From Ureibacillus acetophenoni (GTDB lineage: Bacteria > Bacillota > Bacilli > Bacillales_A > Planococcaceae): DNA of 64,000 nt. Position numbers and translations under genes: made by a program. The stretch covers positions 1-64,000 of the forward strand of contig NZ_OBQC01000005.1 in the NCBI RefSeq assembly GCF_900220965.1, in the 5' to 3' direction. How positions within the stretch are numbered: the stretch's first letter is position 1; each line of letters opens with the position of its first letter. Below the pieces are notes generated by a model. That model did no database searches, was not told the DNA's origin, and was given only the letters and a program-made list of their open reading frames with translations. Of this stretch, positions 24,695 through 34,049 are shown one piece after another.

Positions 24695-24758
24695 ATTAAC
24701 GTTTTGAGAACTGAGGCGCACGACGAGCACCTTTAAGACCGTATTTTTTACGTTCTTT
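24695..24758 (-). repeat. left attachment site: 64-bp copy of the rpsI 3' end
   Basis: Perfectly identical over 64 bp to the 3' end of rpsI at the other end of the island. On the minus strand it encodes the last 20 residues of ribosomal protein S9 ([10 protein letters not shown] to FSKR) and the stop codon, but no start or upstream part. Identity stops abruptly (T against C at the next base), as expected for an integration core duplicated by site-specific recombination. Confidence 0.95.
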
Positions 24759-24872
24759 TATGTGTACTTATAATATGAAGATACATGGAATAAAACAGTC
24801 CTTATTATTCAAGGTTTAAATGTTTTTTATTAGCATAATTGAAATTTAATAATATACCGTTATATATGTTTC

Positions 24873-24890
24873 GTGACCAAAAGGTGACCA
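24873..24890 (+). repeat. arm-type integrase site, left end (two GTGACCA repeats)
   Basis: GTGACCA occurs at 24873 and 24884, an 11-bp period, about 115 bp inside the left attachment site. The same heptamer occurs four times inside the right end in the same orientation. Such short direct repeats near both ends are the arm-binding sites of lambda- and Tn916-type integrases. Confidence 0.75.
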
Positions 24891-25097
24891 ATTTATTGAA
24901 AGCATACACCATTAAGGACATCACTTTTTAAAGAAAATTTGACCCATAGTGAAATTCCAAGGAAAGAATTAATTCAAAAGTCAGAGAAAAGGTCTTTAAT
25001 TAGGATAAGACCTTTTCTATTTTATTAATAGAAAAATTCTAAGAATTATTTATTAAAAGCAAAAATTGTTTACTCTACGCTTCTATGGTAGTCTCTT
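24891..25097. other. left-end noncoding stretch of the island with a terminator
   Basis: The 339 bp between the left attachment site and the HNH gene hold the arm repeats and a bidirectional terminator hairpin at 24986-25017 (GAAAAGGTCTT/AAGACCTTTTC, 11-bp perfect stem). The hairpin could end transcription of the HNH gene. The rest is AT-rich with no gene. Confidence 0.75.
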
Positions 25098-27116
25098 TTA
25101 AATTTTCTGTAGCGTTCTTTCAAAGCTTGGTTCCAAATGTTTATTTAATCTAATATGAATTAAACGATTTGAATCAGTATTATTTAAAAAAAATAGTTCC
25201 CCCTCTTTTTCAAGTAGTTTTTTATAACCACCATACTCATAATGCATCACTTTATGATGATGTGGACACAACACTATGACATTCTTATAACTATCAAGAA
25301 ACTCCTCTGATTCATCATTAGCACCTATGCCTTCATGTAACGGAACGATATGATGCACTTCAACATACTTCTTACCTTCTTTAGTAATAATCTGCGGAAT
25401 CTGATCAGAATTTTCATTTCCACAAATTTGACAAGTATAATCGTATAATTCTTTTAGTAAAACAACTAGTTGTCTAGATCGTGCTATCTGTTCTACTGGT
25501 TGTTTAGTAGTGTTCAAATTACTCTGTAATTTTCTAATATTACCAAGCAGGAAATCCTCTACTTTATCAATTTCAACATCATCATCCTGCAGTTGAAGAA
25601 AAGCTCTATTTGTATTAATTGGTGATTGAATATTTTTTAAATAATCTTCTGCTTCTCTTTTAGATAATCGTTCAAAGCCCCATTCTTTTAATAACTCATC
25701 CTCGTCATAATTAATTTGGGTTGCATATGACCAAATTTTCTTATGAGGTAAAGTTTTTGATTCCAAATAAATTTTGTTATCGTTACTAACAAGTTTACAA
25801 TTTTCCTCAACCATTCTAATTAATTCGAGTTCTTTAAAATCGTCCCGACCATCTATCTCTTCAAGAACTGGAGTATAATTTTTGGGTTTTCCAACAAGCT
25901 CTACATTATAATAGTTTTCTAAATAATCTTTAAAACTCATTTTTTGAATGGATGAATCAACTCTAAGTAAATTATATAATTTTGTACCCGATGGTATATA
26001 AACCTTCGTTTTCTTATTAGCAGTTGAAAGTTCTTCATCAACACGAAACTTCAATATGCGTTCAAGAAGTCTCTCATATCTTTGTCCATCTTGATTACCG
26101 ATATACTTAAATCCGTATTCTTCCATTAACTTCTCAATAGTGATCCCACAATTATTGTAAGCAAAATGATATATTTTTTTGTAATCTTTGCTTTGCTTAT
26201 CCTCAAAAAATACATGACCTGTATCATCCATATTAGCCTCGATTATTTCAAAGATTTTTTTATTACGAGGCACTCCTTTAATAACACTTAAATTATTAAA
26301 ACCAAAATACTTATAAAAATCCTGAACATCTTTAAACTTATTAGATTTTTTCACCATTCTTTTCAAAGTACCAGTTTCACTTATTGTAAGTGTATACCCT
26401 TGTGGGTTTTTGGTGTCATACATAGCTAATTTATGAAGGAAATTTAACTCTTTTTCTTTAAACACATCAAAACCCTTTTTTATCAAGTTTTCAAACAGGC
26501 TAGAAGGCTGTTTAGAAGATAGTTTTAGGGTTCTATATGTACTTGTATCCCTAACTAGAAGGTAGAAATATTCTCCTACCTTTTGTTTTAATATTTGATA
26601 ATGTAATGTCCCATTACTATATTTAACTCTTCTTGTTTCAATCATATCGTCAAAAGTAATCAAATCATGTTCGGTTAACTTTTCTATTGGTTCAGGTAAG
26701 CTCTTACTATCTAGCGATGTACTGAGCCAAATAGCTAAATAATAACCGTTACATTTCAACATTTCTAAAACAAATATTATATTAAAATCTGTTTCCCTAA
26801 TAAGTTCTCTAAAAAGTGCCTTATTATGTCTAAACATTTTATTTTCTACTAAGAATAGATCTTCTTTTGGAACTAAATCTAGAGTCTCAAAATATTTAAA
26901 CCCTTGTGTGCTTAGATAATAACTAATTTTATTTTTTACATTTATGTCTTCACTTTTAAATAAATCTTTATATTCCGGAAAACTTACCATAAAGTTGTAA
27001 ATGGCATTACTTAGTTTTTTAAAATAATCCTGTAATCGAAATACCTTTTTATCTGGAAACAATAAATTCAATTCTTTATTCAAATCATTAATTTTCTTAT
27101 GCATGAGATACGACAT
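25098..27116 (-). CDS. large HNH endonuclease-domain protein with repeated modules
   Basis: 672 residues. Residues 545-640 form an HNH nuclease: CQIC (562-565), the beta-beta-alpha core VEVHHIVPLHEG (His 588-589), Asn612 and LCPHHHKVMH (617-626), with all metal and catalytic residues in place. The N-terminal 215 residues are helical and unrecognised. Between about 216 and 485 lie four divergent modules of 55-65 residues (about 216-277, 284-340, 344-408, 425-485), each ending with a pattern like 'L.EYGFKYIG', 'LKEWGFERLS' or 'FYKYFGFNNLS'; these could bind nucleic acid. It is farthest from the integrase, the usual cargo position. Antiphage defence is a possibility, not shown. Good GGGGGATG ribosome binding site. 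Confidence 0.8.
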   Translation of the reverse strand: MSYLMHKKINDLNKELNLLFPDKKVFRLQDYFKKLSNAIYNFMVSFPEYKDLFKSEDINVKNKISYYLSTQGFKYFETLDLVPKEDLFLVENKMFRHNKALFRELIRETDFNIIFVLEMLKCNGYYLAIWLSTSLDSKSLPEPIEKLTEHDLITFDDMIETRRVKYSNGTLHYQILKQKVGEYFYLLVRDTSTYRTLKLSSKQPSSLFENLIKKGFDVFKEKELNFLHKLAMYDTKNPQGYTLTISETGTLKRMVKKSNKFKDVQDFYKYFGFNNLSVIKGVPRNKKIFEIIEANMDDTGHVFFEDKQSKDYKKIYHFAYNNCGITIEKLMEEYGFKYIGNQDGQRYERLLERILKFRVDEELSTANKKTKVYIPSGTKLYNLLRVDSSIQKMSFKDYLENYYNVELVGKPKNYTPVLEEIDGRDDFKELELIRMVEENCKLVSNDNKIYLESKTLPHKKIWSYATQINYDEDELLKEWGFERLSKREAEDYLKNIQSPINTNRAFLQLQDDDVEIDKVEDFLLGNIRKLQSNLNTTKQPVEQIARSRQLVVLLKELYDYTCQICGNENSDQIPQIITKEGKKYVEVHHIVPLHEGIGANDESEEFLDSYKNVIVLCPHHHKVMHYEYGGYKKLLEKEGELFFLNNTDSNRLIHIRLNKHLEPSFERTLQKI

Positions 27117-27225
27117 TTACATCCCCCATTGTTAAATTATCGAAAGCACCTCAATAATTTCCTGATCCCCTTATATCAGCCTCTAATTATCAAAATCTTT
27201 TAGCTACAAATTAAAGTCTATGGTT

Positions 27226-28860
27226 TTATAATTCTCTTAGCACTTCTCCAACAGTTTTATACTTCCTACCATTCTTATAATATCCATCAATTAAGTAAAT
27301 AATTGAATCTACTTCACCACGTGACAAATATTCGCCATTGTTTTCCGCCACAGTACTTATCAATTCTCTTTTCTCAAAATTCGTCAAATAGCTCCAATCA
27401 TAACCATCTATATCTATAGTGGACGCTCCTAAGGTACTTACGTTACTTTGACTTGATTCGGATATCTCTATAACCGCTTCTCTTACAGTTTTATATTTCC
27501 TTCCATTTTCATAATAACCGTCTATCAAATAAATAATTGAATCTACTTCATCTTGAGATAAATATTCACCATTGTTTTCTGCTTCCGTATTTATAAATTC
27601 TCTTTTCTCAAAATTCGTCAAATAGCTCCAATCATAACCATCTATATCCATAGCTGTTTCCACAAAGGAATCTTCTTTGCTTTGACTTGATTCAGAATAC
27701 TCTTTAAGTACTTCCGCAACTGTTTTATACTTTTCTCCATACTGTGCATAAGTTACATCTACTAATAAAACAATTAAATCTATATCATCTTGCGATAAAT
27801 ATTTACCCTTGTTTTCCATTAACGTACTAATTAGTTCTCTTTTCTCAAAATTCGTAGAATTTCCCCAACCATAACCATCCATGTCTAAAGAAGGTTTTTC
27901 GAATGTACTTATTTTATCTTGGCTTGATTCCGAAATGTCTTCTCGCTCGCTGTTCTGAATATTCATACCGTTAATTGAAACTTCTTGATTACCATTGGAG
28001 TCAGTATTTTCTACATTTACTTCATCCTCAACTAAATAAATTCCTTCCTCCCGGTTAATTCCAATTGTATACTCCTTATTCAATTTCTCTTCTGAATCTC
28101 CACTAGCACTATTTGCCCCTATATTTCCTTTTGCAAATGTGCCTAGTAAGATAAGGATTAATGGTAATAATAATACTAACATCACCCTTAGGAATCCTAT
28201 TTTTCCATGAGTAATTTTCAAATTATTCTTGCGATCCCAATAGGTTATTCCATAAGCTTTTAAATCACTATAGGATTCTGCTAAACAAAAGAAACTTACT
28301 ATAGGAATACCCAACCCCAATCCCCTAAACCATAAAAATGTGCTTCTCTTTAGGGCTGTAGAAAGATTAATTCTATTCTCGTTTTTAGTTGTTATCTTTA
28401 TTCTAAGTAAATATCTCCCTAAAGTACTTCCAAATAACGTAAGTAAAATAGAATCAATAAATATCCATAAAAATAAACCAATCAATCCAAAAATAACACC
28501 ATTTGCTTCATACAAAACTTCACTTGGTAATATTAATGATAGAATTACAAAAAAGAGGCACAAGTCAAACATTTTAGCTAAGTATCTAATCCAAGGTCTA
28601 CTTTTCGAATAAGTCTGAGAACCGTTTTGCTTATAAGTCGTACTACTCGAAACCTCTAATGGCAATGGTGGAGGTGTAATAGTAGAAAAAAGTGATGCTA
28701 GTTGATCACATTCCCCAGCTGCTTTCCAATCATTCATATTACTTGTCCATACTAACGTGTTTTTATCTAATACTCCCTCAAGAAATAACGTTAACAACTT
28801 TGATTCTTCAATGGGGCCATTCTGTTTCCCTTTATAAACATAAAACCAAGTTGATTCCAT
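27226..28860 (-). CDS. GYF-RDD membrane protein with triplicated C-terminal domain
   Basis: 544 residues. Residues 1-58 are a GYF_2 domain (WFYVYKGKQNGPIEESKL ... LVWTSNMNDWKAAGE). Residues 88-215 are an RDD membrane domain with about three helices, and a further helix lies at 222-241. After a polar linker come three tandem copies of a domain of about 65 residues starting at residues 326, 405 and 483 (D-x-DGY-x-W, TNFEKRE, EN.G.YLS..E(D)VD, GRKYKTV), joined by SESSQS linkers. The last helix places the repeats on one side of the membrane, most likely outside. I know no characterised protein with this arrangement; the role is unknown. Confidence 0.8.
   Translation of the reverse strand: MESTWFYVYKGKQNGPIEESKLLTLFLEGVLDKNTLVWTSNMNDWKAAGECDQLASLFSTITPPPLPLEVSSSTTYKQNGSQTYSKSRPWIRYLAKMFDLCLFFVILSLILPSEVLYEANGVIFGLIGLFLWIFIDSILLTLFGSTLGRYLLRIKITTKNENRINLSTALKRSTFLWFRGLGLGIPIVSFFCLAESYSDLKAYGITYWDRKNNLKITHGKIGFLRVMLVLLLPLILILLGTFAKGNIGANSASGDSEEKLNKEYTIGINREEGIYLVEDEVNVENTDSNGNQEVSINGMNIQNSEREDISESSQDKISTFEKPSLDMDGYGWGNSTNFEKRELISTLMENKGKYLSQDDIDLIVLLVDVTYAQYGEKYKTVAEVLKEYSESSQSKEDSFVETAMDIDGYDWSYLTNFEKREFINTEAENNGEYLSQDEVDSIIYLIDGYYENGRKYKTVREAVIEISESSQSNVSTLGASTIDIDGYDWSYLTNFEKRELISTVAENNGEYLSRGEVDSIIYLIDGYYKNGRKYKTVGEVLREL
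27229..27885 (-). repeat. three tandem repeats inside the GYF-RDD gene
   Basis: Three in-frame copies of a unit of 78-79 codons. Copies two and three are nearly identical for the DIDGYDWSYLTNFEKRE segment and the GRKYKTV segment; copy one is more diverged. This indicates two duplication events, the second recent, and a locus prone to change in copy number by recombination. Confidence 0.9.
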
Positions 28861-28932
28861 AAAGCGTCTCCCTAATTTAAATTATTAATATACTAACCCA
28901 TTATGGCGGTTTCACTAGATTTGTAACCGCAA

Positions 28933-29394
28933 TTAATCACTACAACCACAGCGACCTAATGTATCAATGGGAAAACCACAAGAATTACATATCGAAGTAT
29001 TATGTACCGATACATTCCTTTGTTCAGGATTATATTTTTTTCCCTCAGTGATATTTTTATACGATACCTTTAATATATCCCTTGAACACTTTTTGCAAAT
29101 ATGATGCTCGATGTTATGAGTATTGAATAAATCCTTACTTTTACATCTTTTACAAAGGTTTATTATTAAATTTTTACTCTCAATAAAACTATCTATAAGC
29201 TTTTGTATCTCAATTATTACATAGTCTTGGATTTCACTTACTGTACCGTTTTGGATTAAAATATTTATTTCCCTTAGTAATTGTTTGTCTTGTATAATTA
29301 ATTTTCGTAAATTTCGTTCTACATGCTCATCATTTTCACATTTATTAGATAGCCATTCTTTCATTATTTTCTGGATAGGAAACAAAAAAGTCAC
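28933..29394 (-). CDS. small protein with two zinc-binding clusters, unknown function
   Basis: About 150 residues. The first 80 are helical. Cys81-x2-Cys84 with Cys100-x2-Cys103 forms a rubredoxin-like zinc ribbon; a second cluster at the C-terminus has Cys136-x2-Cys139 and Cys149-x-Cys151. I do not recognise the family. The frame opens with GTG 29394 inside a GAGGGGTGA site, so TTG 29385, six bases after it, is a likely start. It lies between the GYF-RDD gene and another zinc-ribbon gene on the island. Confidence 0.65.
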   Translation of the reverse strand: MTFLFPIQKIMKEWLSNKCENDEHVERNLRKLIIQDKQLLREINILIQNGTVSEIQDYVIIEIQKLIDSFIESKNLIINLCKRCKSKDLFNTHNIEHHICKKCSRDILKVSYKNITEGKKYNPEQRNVSVHNTSICNSCGFPIDTLGRCGCSD

Positions 29395-29439
29395 CCCTCA
29401 TTTACTAAAATTGTAAATTATGTTTAATTTTATTCTATA

Positions 29440-29471
29440 TAAAAAGACTCTTCACAACAAGTGAAAGAGTC
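29440..29471 (-). terminator. intrinsic terminator within the island
   Basis: Minus-strand stem GACTCTTTCAC/GTGAAGAGTC with a bulged base, followed by TTTTT, downstream of the zinc-ribbon gene. It separates the replication/regulation operon from the cargo genes. Confidence 0.85.
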
Positions 29472-29555
29472 CTAGGATATTATTACTAATAATTTTACTA
29501 TTTCTAAACATAAGTCGCCCTTTACTTATACCCACTAAATCCACTTACTGATTAC

Positions 29556-30173
29556 TTATTGTTTGAAATCTTTATTTAAATCTAAGAACTTATAAGCTCC
29601 ACGTAACCAGTACTGAAAGGACAATTCACTATATTTTTTAAACTTGCACCACAATTTCTGATATGCAATCCATTTCATATATTTAGGTTTAGCAGGAAAA
29701 GGCCGGTTTAAGTTATATTTATACTCCTTATCTATTTTTCTTGCGACTTGTTCAGCTTTCCGTTGATAATAGTAACTATCCGTTTTTGTATGTTGTTGGG
29801 AATAGTAGTTTAAATTACAACATGTCCTACACGCTAATCCAATATTATCACCATATAATTTGCTGCTTCTTCTACCGCATGATGAACATATGAACCAGTA
29901 TCTAACACCCCCATAATGACAGGGAGTTTGATCTACATAAATTCGTAATTCTAAATTTGAATAACTAAGGCTGATATACATTTCATCTGGATTAACAATA
30001 CCACTCCCAAGTACTTTCCTAGAATTAGTAGGTGAATGAAGAGTAAATGATGATAGCCCAGTATCATTGAACGCTTTAGAAAAGAATCTGATAGAGAACG
30101 TTAATCTATTTTCTACAATATCCTTACTTTTTACATACCCAGCTCCATATCTACCACTTCCTACTCCTCCCAT
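29556..30173 (-). CDS. MGGxGSGR-type zinc-ribbon protein of mobile elements
   Basis: 205 residues. The N-terminus MGGVGSGRYG is a recurrent motif of a widespread but uncharacterised family found on phages, plasmids and integrative elements. A zinc ribbon is formed by Cys96-x2-Cys99 (FICSSCGRRSSKLYG) and Cys115-x2-Cys118 (ACRTCCNLNYYSQ), followed by a basic helical C-terminus. DNA binding is plausible. A GGGGGG ribosome binding site precedes the ATG. The gene starts a unit that ends in the terminator at 29440. Confidence 0.75.
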   Translation of the reverse strand: MGGVGSGRYGAGYVKSKDIVENRLTFSIRFFSKAFNDTGLSSFTLHSPTNSRKVLGSGIVNPDEMYISLSYSNLELRIYVDQTPCHYGGVRYWFICSSCGRRSSKLYGDNIGLACRTCCNLNYYSQQHTKTDSYYYQRKAEQVARKIDKEYKYNLNRPFPAKPKYMKWIAYQKLWCKFKKYSELSFQYWLRGAYKFLDLNKDFKQ

Positions 30174-30303
30174 TCAAGCACCCCCCTGCATTTTCCTGAC
30201 CCTGATTTACCTAAATAATTAAAGAAAACTACCTTGTTTATGAAATCGTGATGTACTTATATCTAATTCCTTAATAAAGTTATAGTTAACGAATTACCTA
30301 ATT

Positions 30304-31041
30304 TTAAAACGAATACTCCAATTCCTCTAAATATCGAACGACACAACTTTTTCCACCATTTAACGCTAAGAACGATAAGATGTTACCATTATTCATAGGC
30401 GATAAGTATTCAAAATGGTAATCTATTATTTCCAACCATTTATCCTCATTGATATCTAAAGTAAGGCTTAAATCTTCGTAGTTTGAAATTAGCTCTCTCA
30501 TTTTCTCATCATTCATTGTTGGATGATCTGTTTTAAACATATCCATATATCGTTGTGCATAATAGGCGAAAGCCTCATTTTCTTCAGAAATGAGGTATAT
30601 GTTTTCTTTATTATTATTAATTTTAGTATTATTTAATTTATTATTATTAGTGTTCAGTTTTTTACCTTTTAAATGTTCAGTTTTTTTACTTTTAAAAGGT
30701 AAGTTTTTTTCCTTTAATATCTCCATAATCACTGTCTCATCTTCATTTATCTTAAAAAAACGCATTGGGGGAGAACCCCTGTTATCCCTCTTTATTAACT
30801 TTAACTCCACTAATTTATCAATTGCCTTTTTTTGCTGGTATTTAGTAAGCGTAGTATCTAGCTCCATATTTTCAATCGTATTAAAGAAAAAACCATCCTC
30901 CGTTAATAAGCCTCTTTGGGCAAAATACTGCTGTTTACTTATCAATTCAGCATATAACACAGCAGCATCCAAACCAATCAATCGAGACAATCTTTTGTTT
31001 ACTATGATACTCCCGTCAGACCGCAATAAATCCAAGATCAT
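30304..31041 (-). CDS. replication-initiator-like protein (DnaD/RepA-N winged-helix type)
   Basis: 245 residues. The N-terminal 110 residues (VNKRLSRLIGLDAAVLYAEL ... FFFNTIENMELDTTLTKYQQKKAIDKLVELKLIKRDNRGSPPMRFFKI) match the winged-helix region of DnaD-like replication proteins of plasmids, ICEs and phage satellites. A low-complexity Asn/Lys linker at about 127-147 precedes a helical C-terminal domain. It overlaps the excisionase-like gene by 4 bp (ATGA), so the genes are coupled. It may allow excised element DNA to replicate. Confidence 0.75.
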   Translation of the reverse strand: MILDLLRSDGSIIVNKRLSRLIGLDAAVLYAELISKQQYFAQRGLLTEDGFFFNTIENMELDTTLTKYQQKKAIDKLVELKLIKRDNRGSPPMRFFKINEDETVIMEILKEKNLPFKSKKTEHLKGKKLNTNNNKLNNTKINNNKENIYLISEENEAFAYYAQRYMDMFKTDHPTMNDEKMRELISNYEDLSLTLDINEDKWLEIIDYHFEYLSPMNNGNILSFLALNGGKSCVVRYLEELEYSF

Positions 31042-31337
31042 AAGTTATTTACCTTCGGTGTATGTTCGCCAGAATTTTTTTGAATCCACGCCTTTACTGC
31101 TCCTCGATTCAAACGAATTACTTGTCCTCTTTGGAAATAGGGAATGTCATTGCTATCTATCAATTTTCGTATTGTTGGGACACTCACCTTAAGAAACTCT
31201 GCTGCTTGCTTTATGGTCATAATATCCTTATCATCTTTTTCCGCTTTGATTTCTTCCATCATCTCTTTTAATACTGCTCTTAGGTCACCCTTACTAATCA
31301 ATATCTTGTCTTCGGGTATTTCAATCTTGAAGTTCAC
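31038..31337 (-). CDS. excisionase-like helix-turn-helix protein
   Basis: About 99 residues. The C-terminal half is a MerR-like/excisionase winged helix of the DNA-binding domain family common to Xis proteins (MTIKQAAEFLKVSVPTIRKLIDSNDIPYFQRGQVIRLNRGAVKAWI). It would bend DNA at the element ends and set the direction of recombination, or act as a regulator. The start is taken as GTG 31337, five bases after AGGTGA; the frame opens at 31346. It overlaps both neighbours, showing tight coupling with the HTH regulator and the replication gene. Confidence 0.8.
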   Translation of the reverse strand: MNFKIEIPEDKILISKGDLRAVLKEMMEEIKAEKDDKDIMTIKQAAEFLKVSVPTIRKLIDSNDIPYFQRGQVIRLNRGAVKAWIQKNSGEHTPKVNNL

Positions 31338-31521
31338 AAACATCACCTAGCTTACTAATCTCCAAAATTAACCACCTTTTCTCTTCCTGTTCCAATTCCT
31401 TTCGTAAAAGCCTTGAAAAAACACTTTCATCGATTTTCAATAATTCGGCTACTTCCCACTGCTTATAACCCATTGATTTAATCATATTTCTGATTTCTTG
31501 ATTAGCTTTTCTCTTCTTCAT
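31321..31521 (-). CDS. small Cro/CI-like helix-turn-helix regulator
   Basis: 66 residues with a single helix-turn-helix (NQEIRNMIKSMGYKQWEVAELLKIDESVFSRLLRKEL) resembling Cro/CI-type or phage-regulator domains. AAAAAGGAGG precedes the ATG. It is the first gene of the leftward regulation/replication operon and faces a rightward gene across 132 bp that contains a perfect palindrome, so it may repress one or both promoters and hold the element quiescent. Confidence 0.82.
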   Translation of the reverse strand: MKKRKANQEIRNMIKSMGYKQWEVAELLKIDESVFSRLLRKELEQEEKRWLILEISKLGDVCELQD

Positions 31522-31580
31522 TGAAGTACCTCCTTTTTAATTTACAAAACAAAACTTGAATTATTGTTTCTGTTGTTGTA

Positions 31581-31597
31581 ATGTTAGGTTAACATTC
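31581..31597. promoter_or_regulatory. palindromic operator candidate in the island's divergent control region
   Basis: AATGTTA-GGT-TAACATT is a perfect 7-3-7 inverted repeat in the middle of the 132 bp between the small HTH regulator and the rightward gene. It is well placed to control both transcripts. Core promoter boxes around it are weak, and I do not assign them. Confidence 0.65.
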
Positions 31598-31653
31598 AAT
31601 ATTTACATTTTTAATATATAAAAAGGGTAAATAATAAAAAGCGAGGTACATTT

Positions 31654-32676
31654 ATGACTAACAACTCAATCTGGTGGAAATCTGAATTTGAAATTGAAGA
31701 TATAAATGGAATTGAATTTATTGTTCAAATAAAAGGAGGTGAAAGAATTGATTATGATCCACTGAATTATGCTATACCAAATAAAAGACCAGACATTCCT
31801 AGTGGGCAAATAGAAATAGCTCCTCACATAGCATTAAGTCGGATTGATCCTGATAGTAAAGAAGAAATTTTAAGGTTCGTAAATGTATGGGGGCTATTAG
31901 GCTTACGAGATACAGCCATCTACGGTAATAAAGAAACAATCATCAATATATTTAATAATCATAATTTAGAACTTAATTATCCCAGTACAGAAGAGTTGTA
32001 TAACAATAATAAAAGACGTGGAGGTGAAAGGAAGCGTGAACCTTTAATTGTTATTCAAGAAGCTGTTCGGACTTTTCAAGAAATTGTACAAAATATTAGC
32101 TTGTATCATGAGGATGAGGGCTTAATAAAAGGCATTCGTAGTTATAAACAACAAATTGAGTTCAAGAAAGACGTAATACGTAGAGAAGATGTAACAAATC
32201 AAACTTATAAAGGTGCTAAACAAAAAGAAGCGAGAGAACTTTTTAATAAAGACACACAATCATTTATTACATTTGAAAGTTTAAATAGGATGCTATCTGA
32301 TGTACACCCACATGTATTTGCGGATACGAAGAACCATTCTATTTCAAAAGGTTGGCGTTTTAAGTCACTAATAGCAGCAATCTACCTAAGAGTTGCACTT
32401 GATTTAGAAGAAGATAAAAAAATAATTCATTGTAAATGGAGGAAATGTAATAAGCTGTTTATTCCTAATAGACCCGATAATCAACATTGCTCAGATGCCT
32501 GTAAAGACAATGAAAAAACAGATCGGGCGAATCAAAGAAAATGGTTGAAGGAAGCAATAGAACAATATAATACTCATCCAACAAACAAGATTGAAGAAGC
32601 ATTTAATTCCTTAATTCAAGAAGGAGTAAGCGGAAGAGTAAAAATATTAGGGGCAATCGGAAAAAAATTACGCTAA
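31654..32676 (+). CDS. CGNR-like zinc-finger protein next to the integrase
   Basis: 340 residues. Residues 60-95 contain RFVNVWGLLGLRDT, a motif recurring in uncharacterised phage and island proteins. Residues 260-283 form a treble-clef-like zinc finger, Cys260-x4-Cys265-x13-Cys279-x3-Cys283 (KWRKCNKLFIPNRPDNQHCSD), followed by a basic segment, reminiscent of CGNR zinc fingers that bind nucleic acid. It is transcribed toward the integrase with 37 bp between them, so probably one operon. A regulator or accessory recombination factor is plausible; function unknown. Confidence 0.7.
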   Translation: MTNNSIWWKSEFEIEDINGIEFIVQIKGGERIDYDPLNYAIPNKRPDIPSGQIEIAPHIALSRIDPDSKEEILRFVNVWGLLGLRDTAIYGNKETIINIFNNHNLELNYPSTEELYNNNKRRGGERKREPLIVIQEAVRTFQEIVQNISLYHEDEGLIKGIRSYKQQIEFKKDVIRREDVTNQTYKGAKQKEARELFNKDTQSFITFESLNRMLSDVHPHVFADTKNHSISKGWRFKSLIAAIYLRVALDLEEDKKIIHCKWRKCNKLFIPNRPDNQHCSDACKDNEKTDRANQRKWLKEAIEQYNTHPTNKIEEAFNSLIQEGVSGRVKILGAIGKKLR

Positions 32677-32713
32677 TTTTTTATTGTCATTATTAATAGA
32701 GAGGAGAAAATAA

Positions 32714-33865
32714 ATGGCATCATTCCAAAAGTACAATACTAAAAAAGGACAAATGTGGTTGTTTATTATCGACACTGGAATTGATCCTGAAACAGGTAAA
32801 AGACAACAGGCTAAACGAAGAGGGTTTAAAACGAAGAAAGAGGCACAACAAGCTGCTTTGGAACTTGAACAACAACTAGCAAACGGTATATCACTAAATC
32901 ATAATAAACTTACCTATCAAGACGTTTATGAAGAATGGTTTTCTACACACGTTAAAACGATTAAAATTAGTACCCAAAAGAGTATTGAATCAAAATTCAG
33001 TAAGCATATTTTACCTCGCTTTGGTCAATTAAAACTAAGGGATATTACCAAGACATACTGCCAAAAAGTAATTAATGATATAGCTGAGACCATTAATTCT
33101 GTTAATGACATTAAGATACAAGCTAACCAAGTTTTCAAGTATGCCTTAAAAATGGATATTATACAAAAGAATCCTATGGAGCATGTAAGCATACCAAGAC
33201 AACAAAGTGAGTTCATCACCGAAGAAAATGAAAAGGATGCGCGAAATTATTGGAAAAAGGAAGAGATAAGGAATTTCCTTACCTTAACTAAACAGGAGTT
33301 ATCATTTCGAGATTATGTATTCTTTCACCTTGCAATATATACAGGAGCGCGTAAGGGAGAAATTCTAGCTCTTACATGGGATGATATAGATTTCAAATCA
33401 GGATCTATTCGTTTTTCAAAAACACTTTTCCATAATAAAGGTCAATTCATCTTTCAAACGTCAAAAACAAAGGAATCTAGACGTTTAATCAGCCTAGATG
33501 ATAAAACCCTTTCACTACTTAAAAAATGGCGTTTAAAGCAAAAAGAATGGGTTATGGCAAAGGGAATTAAATCTGATTATAAAGAACTTATTTTTAATCG
33601 CGAAGATGGTTCTCCAATACGCTTGGCTTATCCTAATGAAAAGCTTGATATCGTAATAAAAAACCATAATCTTCATCGAATAACTATTCACGGTTTACGT
33701 CACACTCACGCCTCCCTTTTATTCGAAGCTGGTGCAAGTATAAAAGAGGTTCAAGAACGTTTAGGTCACTCTGATATACAAATGACCATGAACATCTATA
33801 CACACGTTACAGATACGTTAAAAGAGCAAACCGCGCAGAAGTTCCAAAAGTATATTGAACTATAA
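32714..33865 (+). CDS. int: tyrosine site-specific integrase of the rpsI element
   Basis: 383 residues with three parts: an N-terminal arm-binding domain of AP2-like type (about 1-58, KGQMWLFIIDTGIDPETGKR), a SAM-like core-binding domain (about 65-165) and the catalytic domain. Catalytic residues are all visible: Arg213 (GARKGE), Lys251 or 253, His326-x2-Arg329 (HGLRHTH), His352 (LGHSD) and the nucleophile Tyr362 (NIYTHVT). It is an intact lambda/Tn916-type integrase. Its gene ends 121 bp from the 64-bp attachment repeat, and four GTGACCA arm repeats lie in between. GAGAGGAG ribosome binding site. Confidence 0.97.
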   Translation: MASFQKYNTKKGQMWLFIIDTGIDPETGKRQQAKRRGFKTKKEAQQAALELEQQLANGISLNHNKLTYQDVYEEWFSTHVKTIKISTQKSIESKFSKHILPRFGQLKLRDITKTYCQKVINDIAETINSVNDIKIQANQVFKYALKMDIIQKNPMEHVSIPRQQSEFITEENEKDARNYWKKEEIRNFLTLTKQELSFRDYVFFHLAIYTGARKGEILALTWDDIDFKSGSIRFSKTLFHNKGQFIFQTSKTKESRRLISLDDKTLSLLKKWRLKQKEWVMAKGIKSDYKELIFNREDGSPIRLAYPNEKLDIVIKNHNLHRITIHGLRHTHASLLFEAGASIKEVQERLGHSDIQMTMNIYTHVTDTLKEQTAQKFQKYIEL

Positions 33866-33871
33866 GTGTAG

Positions 33872-33918
33872 GTGACCAGAAGTGACCAAAAAACATTTCC
33901 GTGACCAAAATGTGACCA
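33872..33918 (+). repeat. arm-type integrase sites, right end (four GTGACCA repeats)
   Basis: GTGACCA starts at 33872, 33882, 33901 and 33912, two pairs with 10- and 11-bp periods, all in the same orientation as the two copies inside the left end. Placed between the integrase stop and the attachment core, they are the expected arm-binding sites. Confidence 0.8.
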
Positions 33919-33935
33919 AAAGCGTTTTTCTACTC

Positions 33936-33972
33936 AAAAAAAGACCCTTTCCTCCGAAGAGAAAAGAGTCTT
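33936..33972 (-). terminator. rpsI terminator supplied by the island
   Basis: Minus-strand imperfect stem AAGACTCTTTTC/GGAAAGGGTCTT followed by TTTTTTT, immediately downstream of the current rpsI stop. It replaces the ancestral terminator now 9.3 kb away. It is also in position to stop integrase transcription. Confidence 0.85.
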
Positions 33973-33985
33973 GAAACGTAGATAT

Positions 33986-34049
33986 ATTAACGTTTTGAGA
34001 ACTGAGGCGCACGACGAGCACCTTTAAGACCGTATTTTTTACGTTCTTT
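33986..34049 (-). repeat. right attachment site: 64-bp 3' end of intact rpsI
   Basis: The second copy of the 64-bp direct repeat. Here it is continuous with the complete rpsI gene, and includes its last 20 codons and stop plus one base. Confidence 0.95.

What the first reader, a model, noticed from the sequence alone, without database searches (positions are those of the whole stretch)
25098..27116. Large HNH protein with four divergent repeated modules, a possible new defence or nuclease family
An intact HNH nuclease (CxxC, HH, N, H residues present) is fused to about 540 residues that fit no family I know. Residues 216-485 can be read as four modules of 55-65 residues, each ending in a '(Y/W/F)GF-x2-(I/L)' turn. 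A repeat array joined to a nuclease suggests modular nucleic-acid recognition. The gene lies at the end of the island farthest from the integrase, where satellites often carry antiphage genes.
Basis: partly seen in the sequence, partly recalled or inferred. Interest (0 to 1): 0.65.

Follow-up and report, generated by a model that had tools for sequence, protein, structure and literature searches.

The report
Modular-repeat HNH nuclease, probably anti-phage
A mobile DNA island inserted in a ribosomal-protein gene carries a DNA-cutting enzyme joined to a row of related, previously undescribed building blocks that probably read DNA; it looks like a one-gene defence against foreign DNA, but nobody has tested it.

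Summary
The 672-aa gene (25098-27116, minus) is intact, with an HNH_2/McrA-type nuclease at residues 562-622. The rest matches no Pfam, NCBIfam or PADLOC family. Residues 216-487 hold four copies of one ~60-residue module, and a fifth, diverged copy lies at residues 1-76. Full-length homologues in Paenisporosarcina, Pontibacillus, Neobacillus, Heliorestis and Desulfosporosinus carry 4 to 6 modules. Profile comparisons of module positions score 30-89, against at most 15 for shuffled columns. A single module is modelled at pLDDT 89.7 without a confident known fold; the best lead is ribbon-helix-helix (weak). The gene is the distal cargo of a 9.3 kb element between 64-bp att repeats at the 3' end of rpsI. 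A sister element in the same genus carries a PADLOC defence candidate (PDC-M33) in the same slot, and two homologues neighbour PDC-S26 and PDC-S28 genes. No homologue was found in 50,697 phage records or IMG/VR, which argues against a phage homing enzyme. Best reading: a single-gene restriction-like nuclease whose module array reads DNA. DNA binding and defence are inferred, not shown.

The parts
25098..27116 (-). 672-aa modular HNH nuclease gene
26889..27116 (-). N-terminal diverged module (residues 1-76), aligned with module m0 of homologues
   Evidence: alignment
26472..26888 (-). Residues 77-215: region aligned with the HTH and small alpha/beta domain of homologues; HTH not recognisable in the window protein
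26274..26471 (-). Module m2 (residues 216-281), degenerate at the single-sequence level
26088..26270 (-). Module m3 (residues 283-343), best-preserved module
25875..26087 (-). Module m4 (residues 344-414), with inserted residues
25656..25847 (-). Module m5 (residues 424-487)
25134..25481 (-). Helical lead-in and HNH nuclease domain (residues 546-661; HNH_2 core 562-622)
24695..24758 (.). att repeat, distal copy (64 bp, identical)
33986..34049 (.). att repeat inside the 3' end of rpsI (64 bp, identical)
32714..33865 (+). Tyrosine integrase of the element
   Evidence: PF00589 E 2e-30
31038..31346 (-). Excisionase-like small DNA-binding protein; 53% identical copy in the G003 sister element
30304..31041 (-). 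Replication-initiation-like protein
   Evidence: phrog_428 E 1.3e-12

Best explanation
It is a single-chain, DNA-reading HNH endonuclease that acts as a one-gene restriction-type defence carried by an rpsI-integrated element. The modules (each a helix, short strands, a helix-turn-helix pair and a closing 'GF' strand) form a tandem array, together with an HTH in most homologues, that grips DNA over an extended site. The C-terminal zinc-braced McrA-type HNH domain then cuts. Because no methyltransferase was identified among the element's scanned genes, self-protection would come from reading a foreign modification, a long rare site absent from the host, or a DNA state seen only during invasion. 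Shown: intact nuclease motifs, repeat homology, variable module number, purifying selection in a homologue pair, cargo position. Inferred: DNA binding, cleavage, defence.
For: HNH_2 hit and conserved catalytic residues; closest solved nuclease domain is EcoKMcrA, PDB 6ghc E 1.8e-5, and PADLOC mREase_IV E 1.6e-5 over the HNH part. Repeats real. Homologues keep an HTH beside the first module, and the module also occurs beside an HTH in a 248-aa protein (L092). Module register matches ribbon-helix-helix families above shuffled controls: 18.8 and 20.9 against 11.0 and 13.4; a winged-helix family gives 13.2 against 12.0 without useful register. Homologue pair G034/G154: dN/dS 0.12 overall, 0.11 over the module part. 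Cargo slot: the sister element in G003, at the same att with a 76% identical integrase, carries PDC-M33A/B there. Homologue neighbours: PDC-S26 (E 1.2e-69) and PDC-S28 (E 9.3e-137). No homologue in phages or viral contigs.
Against: No experiment on any member was found. Module charge is mixed: m5 is acidic in most members, so not every module need touch DNA. RHH resemblance is only 22-27% probable and no fold match is significant. The window copy's HTH is not recognisable. Two PDC neighbours and one sister cargo are few, no background rate was measured, and PDC families are themselves candidates. No PADLOC model covers the protein beyond its HNH part.
Confidence: 0.5

Rival explanations
1. A site-specific selfish (homing-type) or element-serving nuclease: the array recognises one long target and the cut favours spread or retention of the element that carries it.
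For: Free-standing HNH genes with modular DNA-binding domains are typical of homing enzymes (general knowledge); the gene lies in an integrated mobile element; scattered, patchy distribution.
Against: No homologue in 50,697 phage records or in IMG/VR. Homologues lie in different chromosomal and plasmid contexts without a shared target gene. The element already has its own tyrosine integrase. The G003 element uses the same site without this gene.
Confidence: 0.2
2. A DNA-metabolism or regulatory protein of mobile elements (for example replication or copy control), in which HNH cutting serves processing of the element's own DNA.
For: Operon-like array with a replication-initiation-like gene and zinc-ribbon genes on the same strand; a homologue lies near SSB-like, RadC-like and Cas4/RecB-like genes in Heliorestis.
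Against: No conserved partner gene around the homologues; the G003 sister element lacks it yet keeps integrase and excisionase.
Confidence: 0.15
3. A decaying copy: the family is functional elsewhere, but the window copy has lost its HTH and diverged modules and is no longer selected.
For: Window modules score far lower than those of relatives, and the HTH region carries insertions.
Against: 672 codons stay open and all nuclease motifs are kept. No second copy in the genome and no close relative, so selection on this copy itself could not be measured.
Confidence: 0.1

Closest known systems
EcoKMcrA and TagI (type IV, modification-dependent HNH restriction enzymes)
   Same: C-terminal HNH domain with the EVHH...N...C-P-x-x-H pattern; single-chain architecture with N-terminal DNA-sensing part (PMC6212794).
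   Different: No SRA, EVE, PUA or wH sensor was recognised; instead 4-6 modules of an undescribed kind plus an HTH. Modification dependence is untested.
wH-HNH and PUA-wH-HNH type IV enzymes (PMC11037411)
   Same: Small DNA-reading domain(s) fused to HNH; single-chain enzymes.
   Different: The module is repeated, and matched the winged-helix control profile little better than shuffles and without useful register.
HNH homing endonucleases with NUMOD or HNH-associated repeats
   Same: Repeated small modules joined to HNH.
   Different: None of these Pfam repeats was reported for the protein (E up to 1) or for 30 single modules (E up to 10); no phage homologues.
Ribbon-helix-helix DNA-binding domains (RHH_1, NikA-like)
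   Same: Same register of strand, long helix, turn, short helix; two weak NikA-like Pfam hits among 30 modules.
   Different: Known RHH domains work as dimers of separate chains (general knowledge); here units are tandem in one chain with an added helix and strand. Probability only 22-27%.

Membership tests
HNH_2 / HNH nuclease superfamily | HNH_2 profile above cut-off and conserved His/Asn/Cys motif | tested here: met
   PF13391 30.8 bits, cut-off 21; invariant residues in alignments
Type IV modification-dependent HNH restriction enzymes | McrA/TagI-type HNH domain | tested here: met
   6ghc E 1.8e-5; mREase_IV E 1.6e-5 over residues 560-629
Type IV modification-dependent HNH restriction enzymes | A known modification-sensor domain (SRA, EVE, wH, NEco) | tested here: inconclusive
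   No such Pfam family listed; structure of the N-terminal part poorly modelled
Type IV modification-dependent HNH restriction enzymes | Cleavage only of modified DNA | not testable with these tools
   Needs enzyme assay
Phage or intron homing HNH endonucleases | Location in intron, intein or phage genome, with relatives there | tested here: not met
   Cargo of an rpsI element; no relative in phage records or viral contigs
Homing HNH endonucleases | NUMOD or HNH-associated repeat families | tested here: not met
   Not among Pfam hits of the protein (E up to 1) or of 30 modules (E up to 10)
Ribbon-helix-helix superfamily (for the module) | Strand-helix-helix profile similarity | tested here: inconclusive
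   hhalign score 18.8-20.9, shuffles at most 13.4, probability 22-27%
Ribbon-helix-helix superfamily (for the module) | Intertwined two-fold unit with paired strands that bind DNA | not tested
   Only a single-module model was made; no significant fold match
Known anti-phage system in PADLOC | Match of a system model over the whole protein | tested here: not met
   Only HNH-part matches

The most novel reading that the evidence does not exclude
The array is a tandem, single-chain set of ribbon-helix-helix-like units in which each module reads a few bases, joined to an HNH nuclease: a naturally modular restriction enzyme whose specificity evolves by gaining, losing and diverging modules.
Probability: 0.2. 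Interest if true: 0.85.

Novelty: new variant of a known kind. Interest (0 to 1): 0.52.

Why it matters
The module has no curated family, yet occurs in HNH nucleases, in an HTH protein and in leucine-rich-repeat proteins. If it binds DNA, it would be a new class of repeat-based DNA reader. Variable module number (4 to 6 in full-length relatives) gives natural variants that make the specificity question directly testable. If the gene protects cells, it adds a single-gene system missing from the defence catalogue searched here.

Tried and rejected
Genome-contig scan with the single protein found no relative; an alignment was needed. Viral scans with two alignments found none; the module-only alignment was too variable for that scan. 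The full-length structure from five sequences is poor (mean pLDDT 48.9) and was not used for fold searches. An attempt at a deeper two-module alignment failed because identical stretches were stacked, so one module was modelled instead. Fold searches with it gave no significant match: PDB Foldseek best E 1.4, VIA-align best Z 3.2 (a Spo0J/ParB chain), viral best E 0.28. Profile search of the PDB with the module: best E 0.21, taken as chance. Winged-helix as the module's family: control profile barely above shuffles. Weak Pfam hits in the module region (TseB, DXP_synthase_N and the like) were rejected as below cut-off and not shared by homologues. A two-gene system with the neighbouring GYF/RDD gene was considered and rejected: none of the homologue loci whose ORFs I listed showed such a neighbour, but this was judged from ORF starts and annotation, not from a dedicated search.

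Full report
CHECK OF THE OBSERVATION. The ORF 25098-27116 (minus, 672 aa) is as described. HNH_2 matches residues 562-622 above its cut-off; no other family reaches its cut-off in Pfam or NCBIfam. PADLOC and PHROGs hit the HNH part only. The fourth module has a degenerate motif.

HOMOLOGUES. tblastn and profile searches found full-length relatives: Paenisporosarcina sp. HGH0030 (L018, the same protein as L002), a second genome of the same genus (L026), Pontibacillus sp. ALD_SL1 plasmid (L015), Neobacillus niacini (L019), a record labelled Klebsiella grimontii plasmid pNY3A (L014), Heliorestis (L020), Desulfosporosinus (L021), and shorter relatives L022, L023 and L055. None was found in phage records or viral contigs. 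Only three of 261 genomes of the family carry a full-length copy, window included.

THE REPEATS. The family aligns as: module m0, in some members preceded or followed by an extra module (Paenisporosarcina, Neobacillus, pNY3A); a helix-turn-helix; a small alpha/beta region; modules m2 to m5; a helical lead-in; HNH. Heliorestis and Desulfosporosinus lack m4. Module positions compared as profiles are mutually related (probability 87-99%, scores 30-89; shuffled columns at most 15.2), while the HTH and alpha/beta region score like noise. An HMM trained without the window protein finds its modules at 44.6 bits against 13.7 for the best shuffle. So the four modules of residues 216-487 are real. A diverged fifth copy at residues 1-76 rests on alignment with m0 of the homologues. 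Variable copy number is the strongest sign that the module is a true unit.

FOLD OF THE MODULE. An 18-row alignment gave a single-module model at pLDDT 89.7, pTM 0.73: helix, short strands, long helix, short helix, short strand. In the weak full-length model (mean 48.9) the same order of elements recurs five times, with block pLDDT of about 64-80 over much of m3 to m5. No solved or viral structure matches significantly. The register of strand, long helix, turn and short helix matches ribbon-helix-helix families better than shuffles (18.8 and 20.9 against 11.0 and 13.4), but probability is only 22-27%; a winged-helix control gave nothing useful. RHH-like is therefore a lead, not an assignment. 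Outside the nuclease family the module occurs in a 248-aa protein followed by an HTH (L092, Sigma70_r4_2 E 1.4e-4) and in BspA-type leucine-rich-repeat proteins of about 1,185 residues (L074/L093 checked; L196 by hit and length only).

THE NUCLEASE. The HNH profile's best solved relative is EcoKMcrA (6ghc, E 1.8e-5). TagI appears weakly. These are type IV enzymes (PMC6212794). Sensor-HNH fusions that read base modification are common in that class (PMC11037411). No such sensor was recognised here. Genome pair G034/G154 shows purifying selection over the whole gene (dN/dS 0.12; 0.11 in the module part, 0.18 in HNH).

THE ELEMENT. A 64-bp identical repeat at 24695-24758 and 33986-34049, the second covering the 3' end of rpsI, bounds a 9.3 kb element. 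Its genes are a tyrosine integrase, an excisionase-like protein, a replication-initiation-like protein, zinc-ribbon proteins, a GYF/RDD membrane protein and the nuclease as last gene. No relaxase, terminase or capsid family was hit among the genes scanned. In the same genus, G005 and G002 have single att copies (empty site). G003 has a sister element at the same att with a 76% identical but interrupted integrase, and G023 a 14 kb one. The distal slot of the G003 element holds a three-gene set whose first two genes match PADLOC PDC-M33A (E 5.7e-53) and PDC-M33B (E 7e-16). The 3' end of rpsI is a known integration site of Streptococcus mobilizable elements of about 9 kb (PMC5704250). Beside homologues: a PDC-S26 gene in Paenisporosarcina and a PDC-S28 helicase in Desulfosporosinus. 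PDC genes are 'phage defence candidates' (PMC11514479), so this is support by association only. No background rate for such neighbours was measured.

MECHANISM. Most likely the array and HTH bind DNA over an extended site and the HNH domain cuts, as a one-gene restriction-type defence (0.5). Shown: intact motifs, repeat homology, copy-number change, cargo position. Inferred: binding, cutting, defence and self-avoidance. The mixed charge of modules (m5 acidic in most members) warns that some modules may contact protein or be structural. Rivals: a selfish site-specific nuclease (0.2), an element-processing nuclease (0.15), a decaying copy (0.1).

NOVELTY. The combination is not in the libraries searched. 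It works like a modular DNA-reading HNH nuclease. Membership in the type IV class is met for the nuclease domain only; the homing class is not met by location or relatives.

Noticed in passing
window 24695-34049; L107, L108, L110, L111: rpsI 3' end is a hot spot for small integrated elements in this genus: same 64-bp att, different cargo in G003 and G023, single att copies in G005 and G002.
   Followed up: partly
L107 1088-2116 and 2313-2606: The integrase of the G003 sister element is split into two ORFs, so that element may be immobile.
   Followed up: no
window 27226-28860: GYF_2 + RDD membrane protein whose C-terminal part repeats three times a segment like 'DIDGYDWSYLTNFEKRELISTVAENNGEYLSRGEVDSIIYLIDGYY'; the repeats reach no Pfam cut-off. 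It precedes the nuclease gene.
   Followed up: partly
L014 (CP079755.1 170282-196009): Region labelled Klebsiella grimontii plasmid pNY3A has 34% G+C and a nuclease 70% identical to that of Neobacillus; probably a mislabelled or contaminating Bacillaceae plasmid.
   Followed up: partly
L014 2450-11440; L019 568-5478: The nuclease gene follows an Hsp70-containing gene cluster in both (beta-CASP metallo-hydrolase in L014, HEAT-repeat protein in L019); possibly a conserved neighbourhood, no PADLOC system named.
   Followed up: partly
L074/L093, L196: Two or three module copies at the N-terminus of a BspA-type leucine-rich-repeat protein of 1186 aa (L074/L093); L196 is a similar-length hit not examined.
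   Followed up: partly
L092 1327-2073: 248-aa protein with one module followed by a sigma-region-4-like HTH, next to a helicase-like gene.
   Followed up: partly
window 31654-32676: Divergently transcribed 340-aa protein before the integrase with a C-terminal cysteine-rich, possibly zinc-binding stretch; no Pfam family, weak phrog_30403 match.
   Followed up: no
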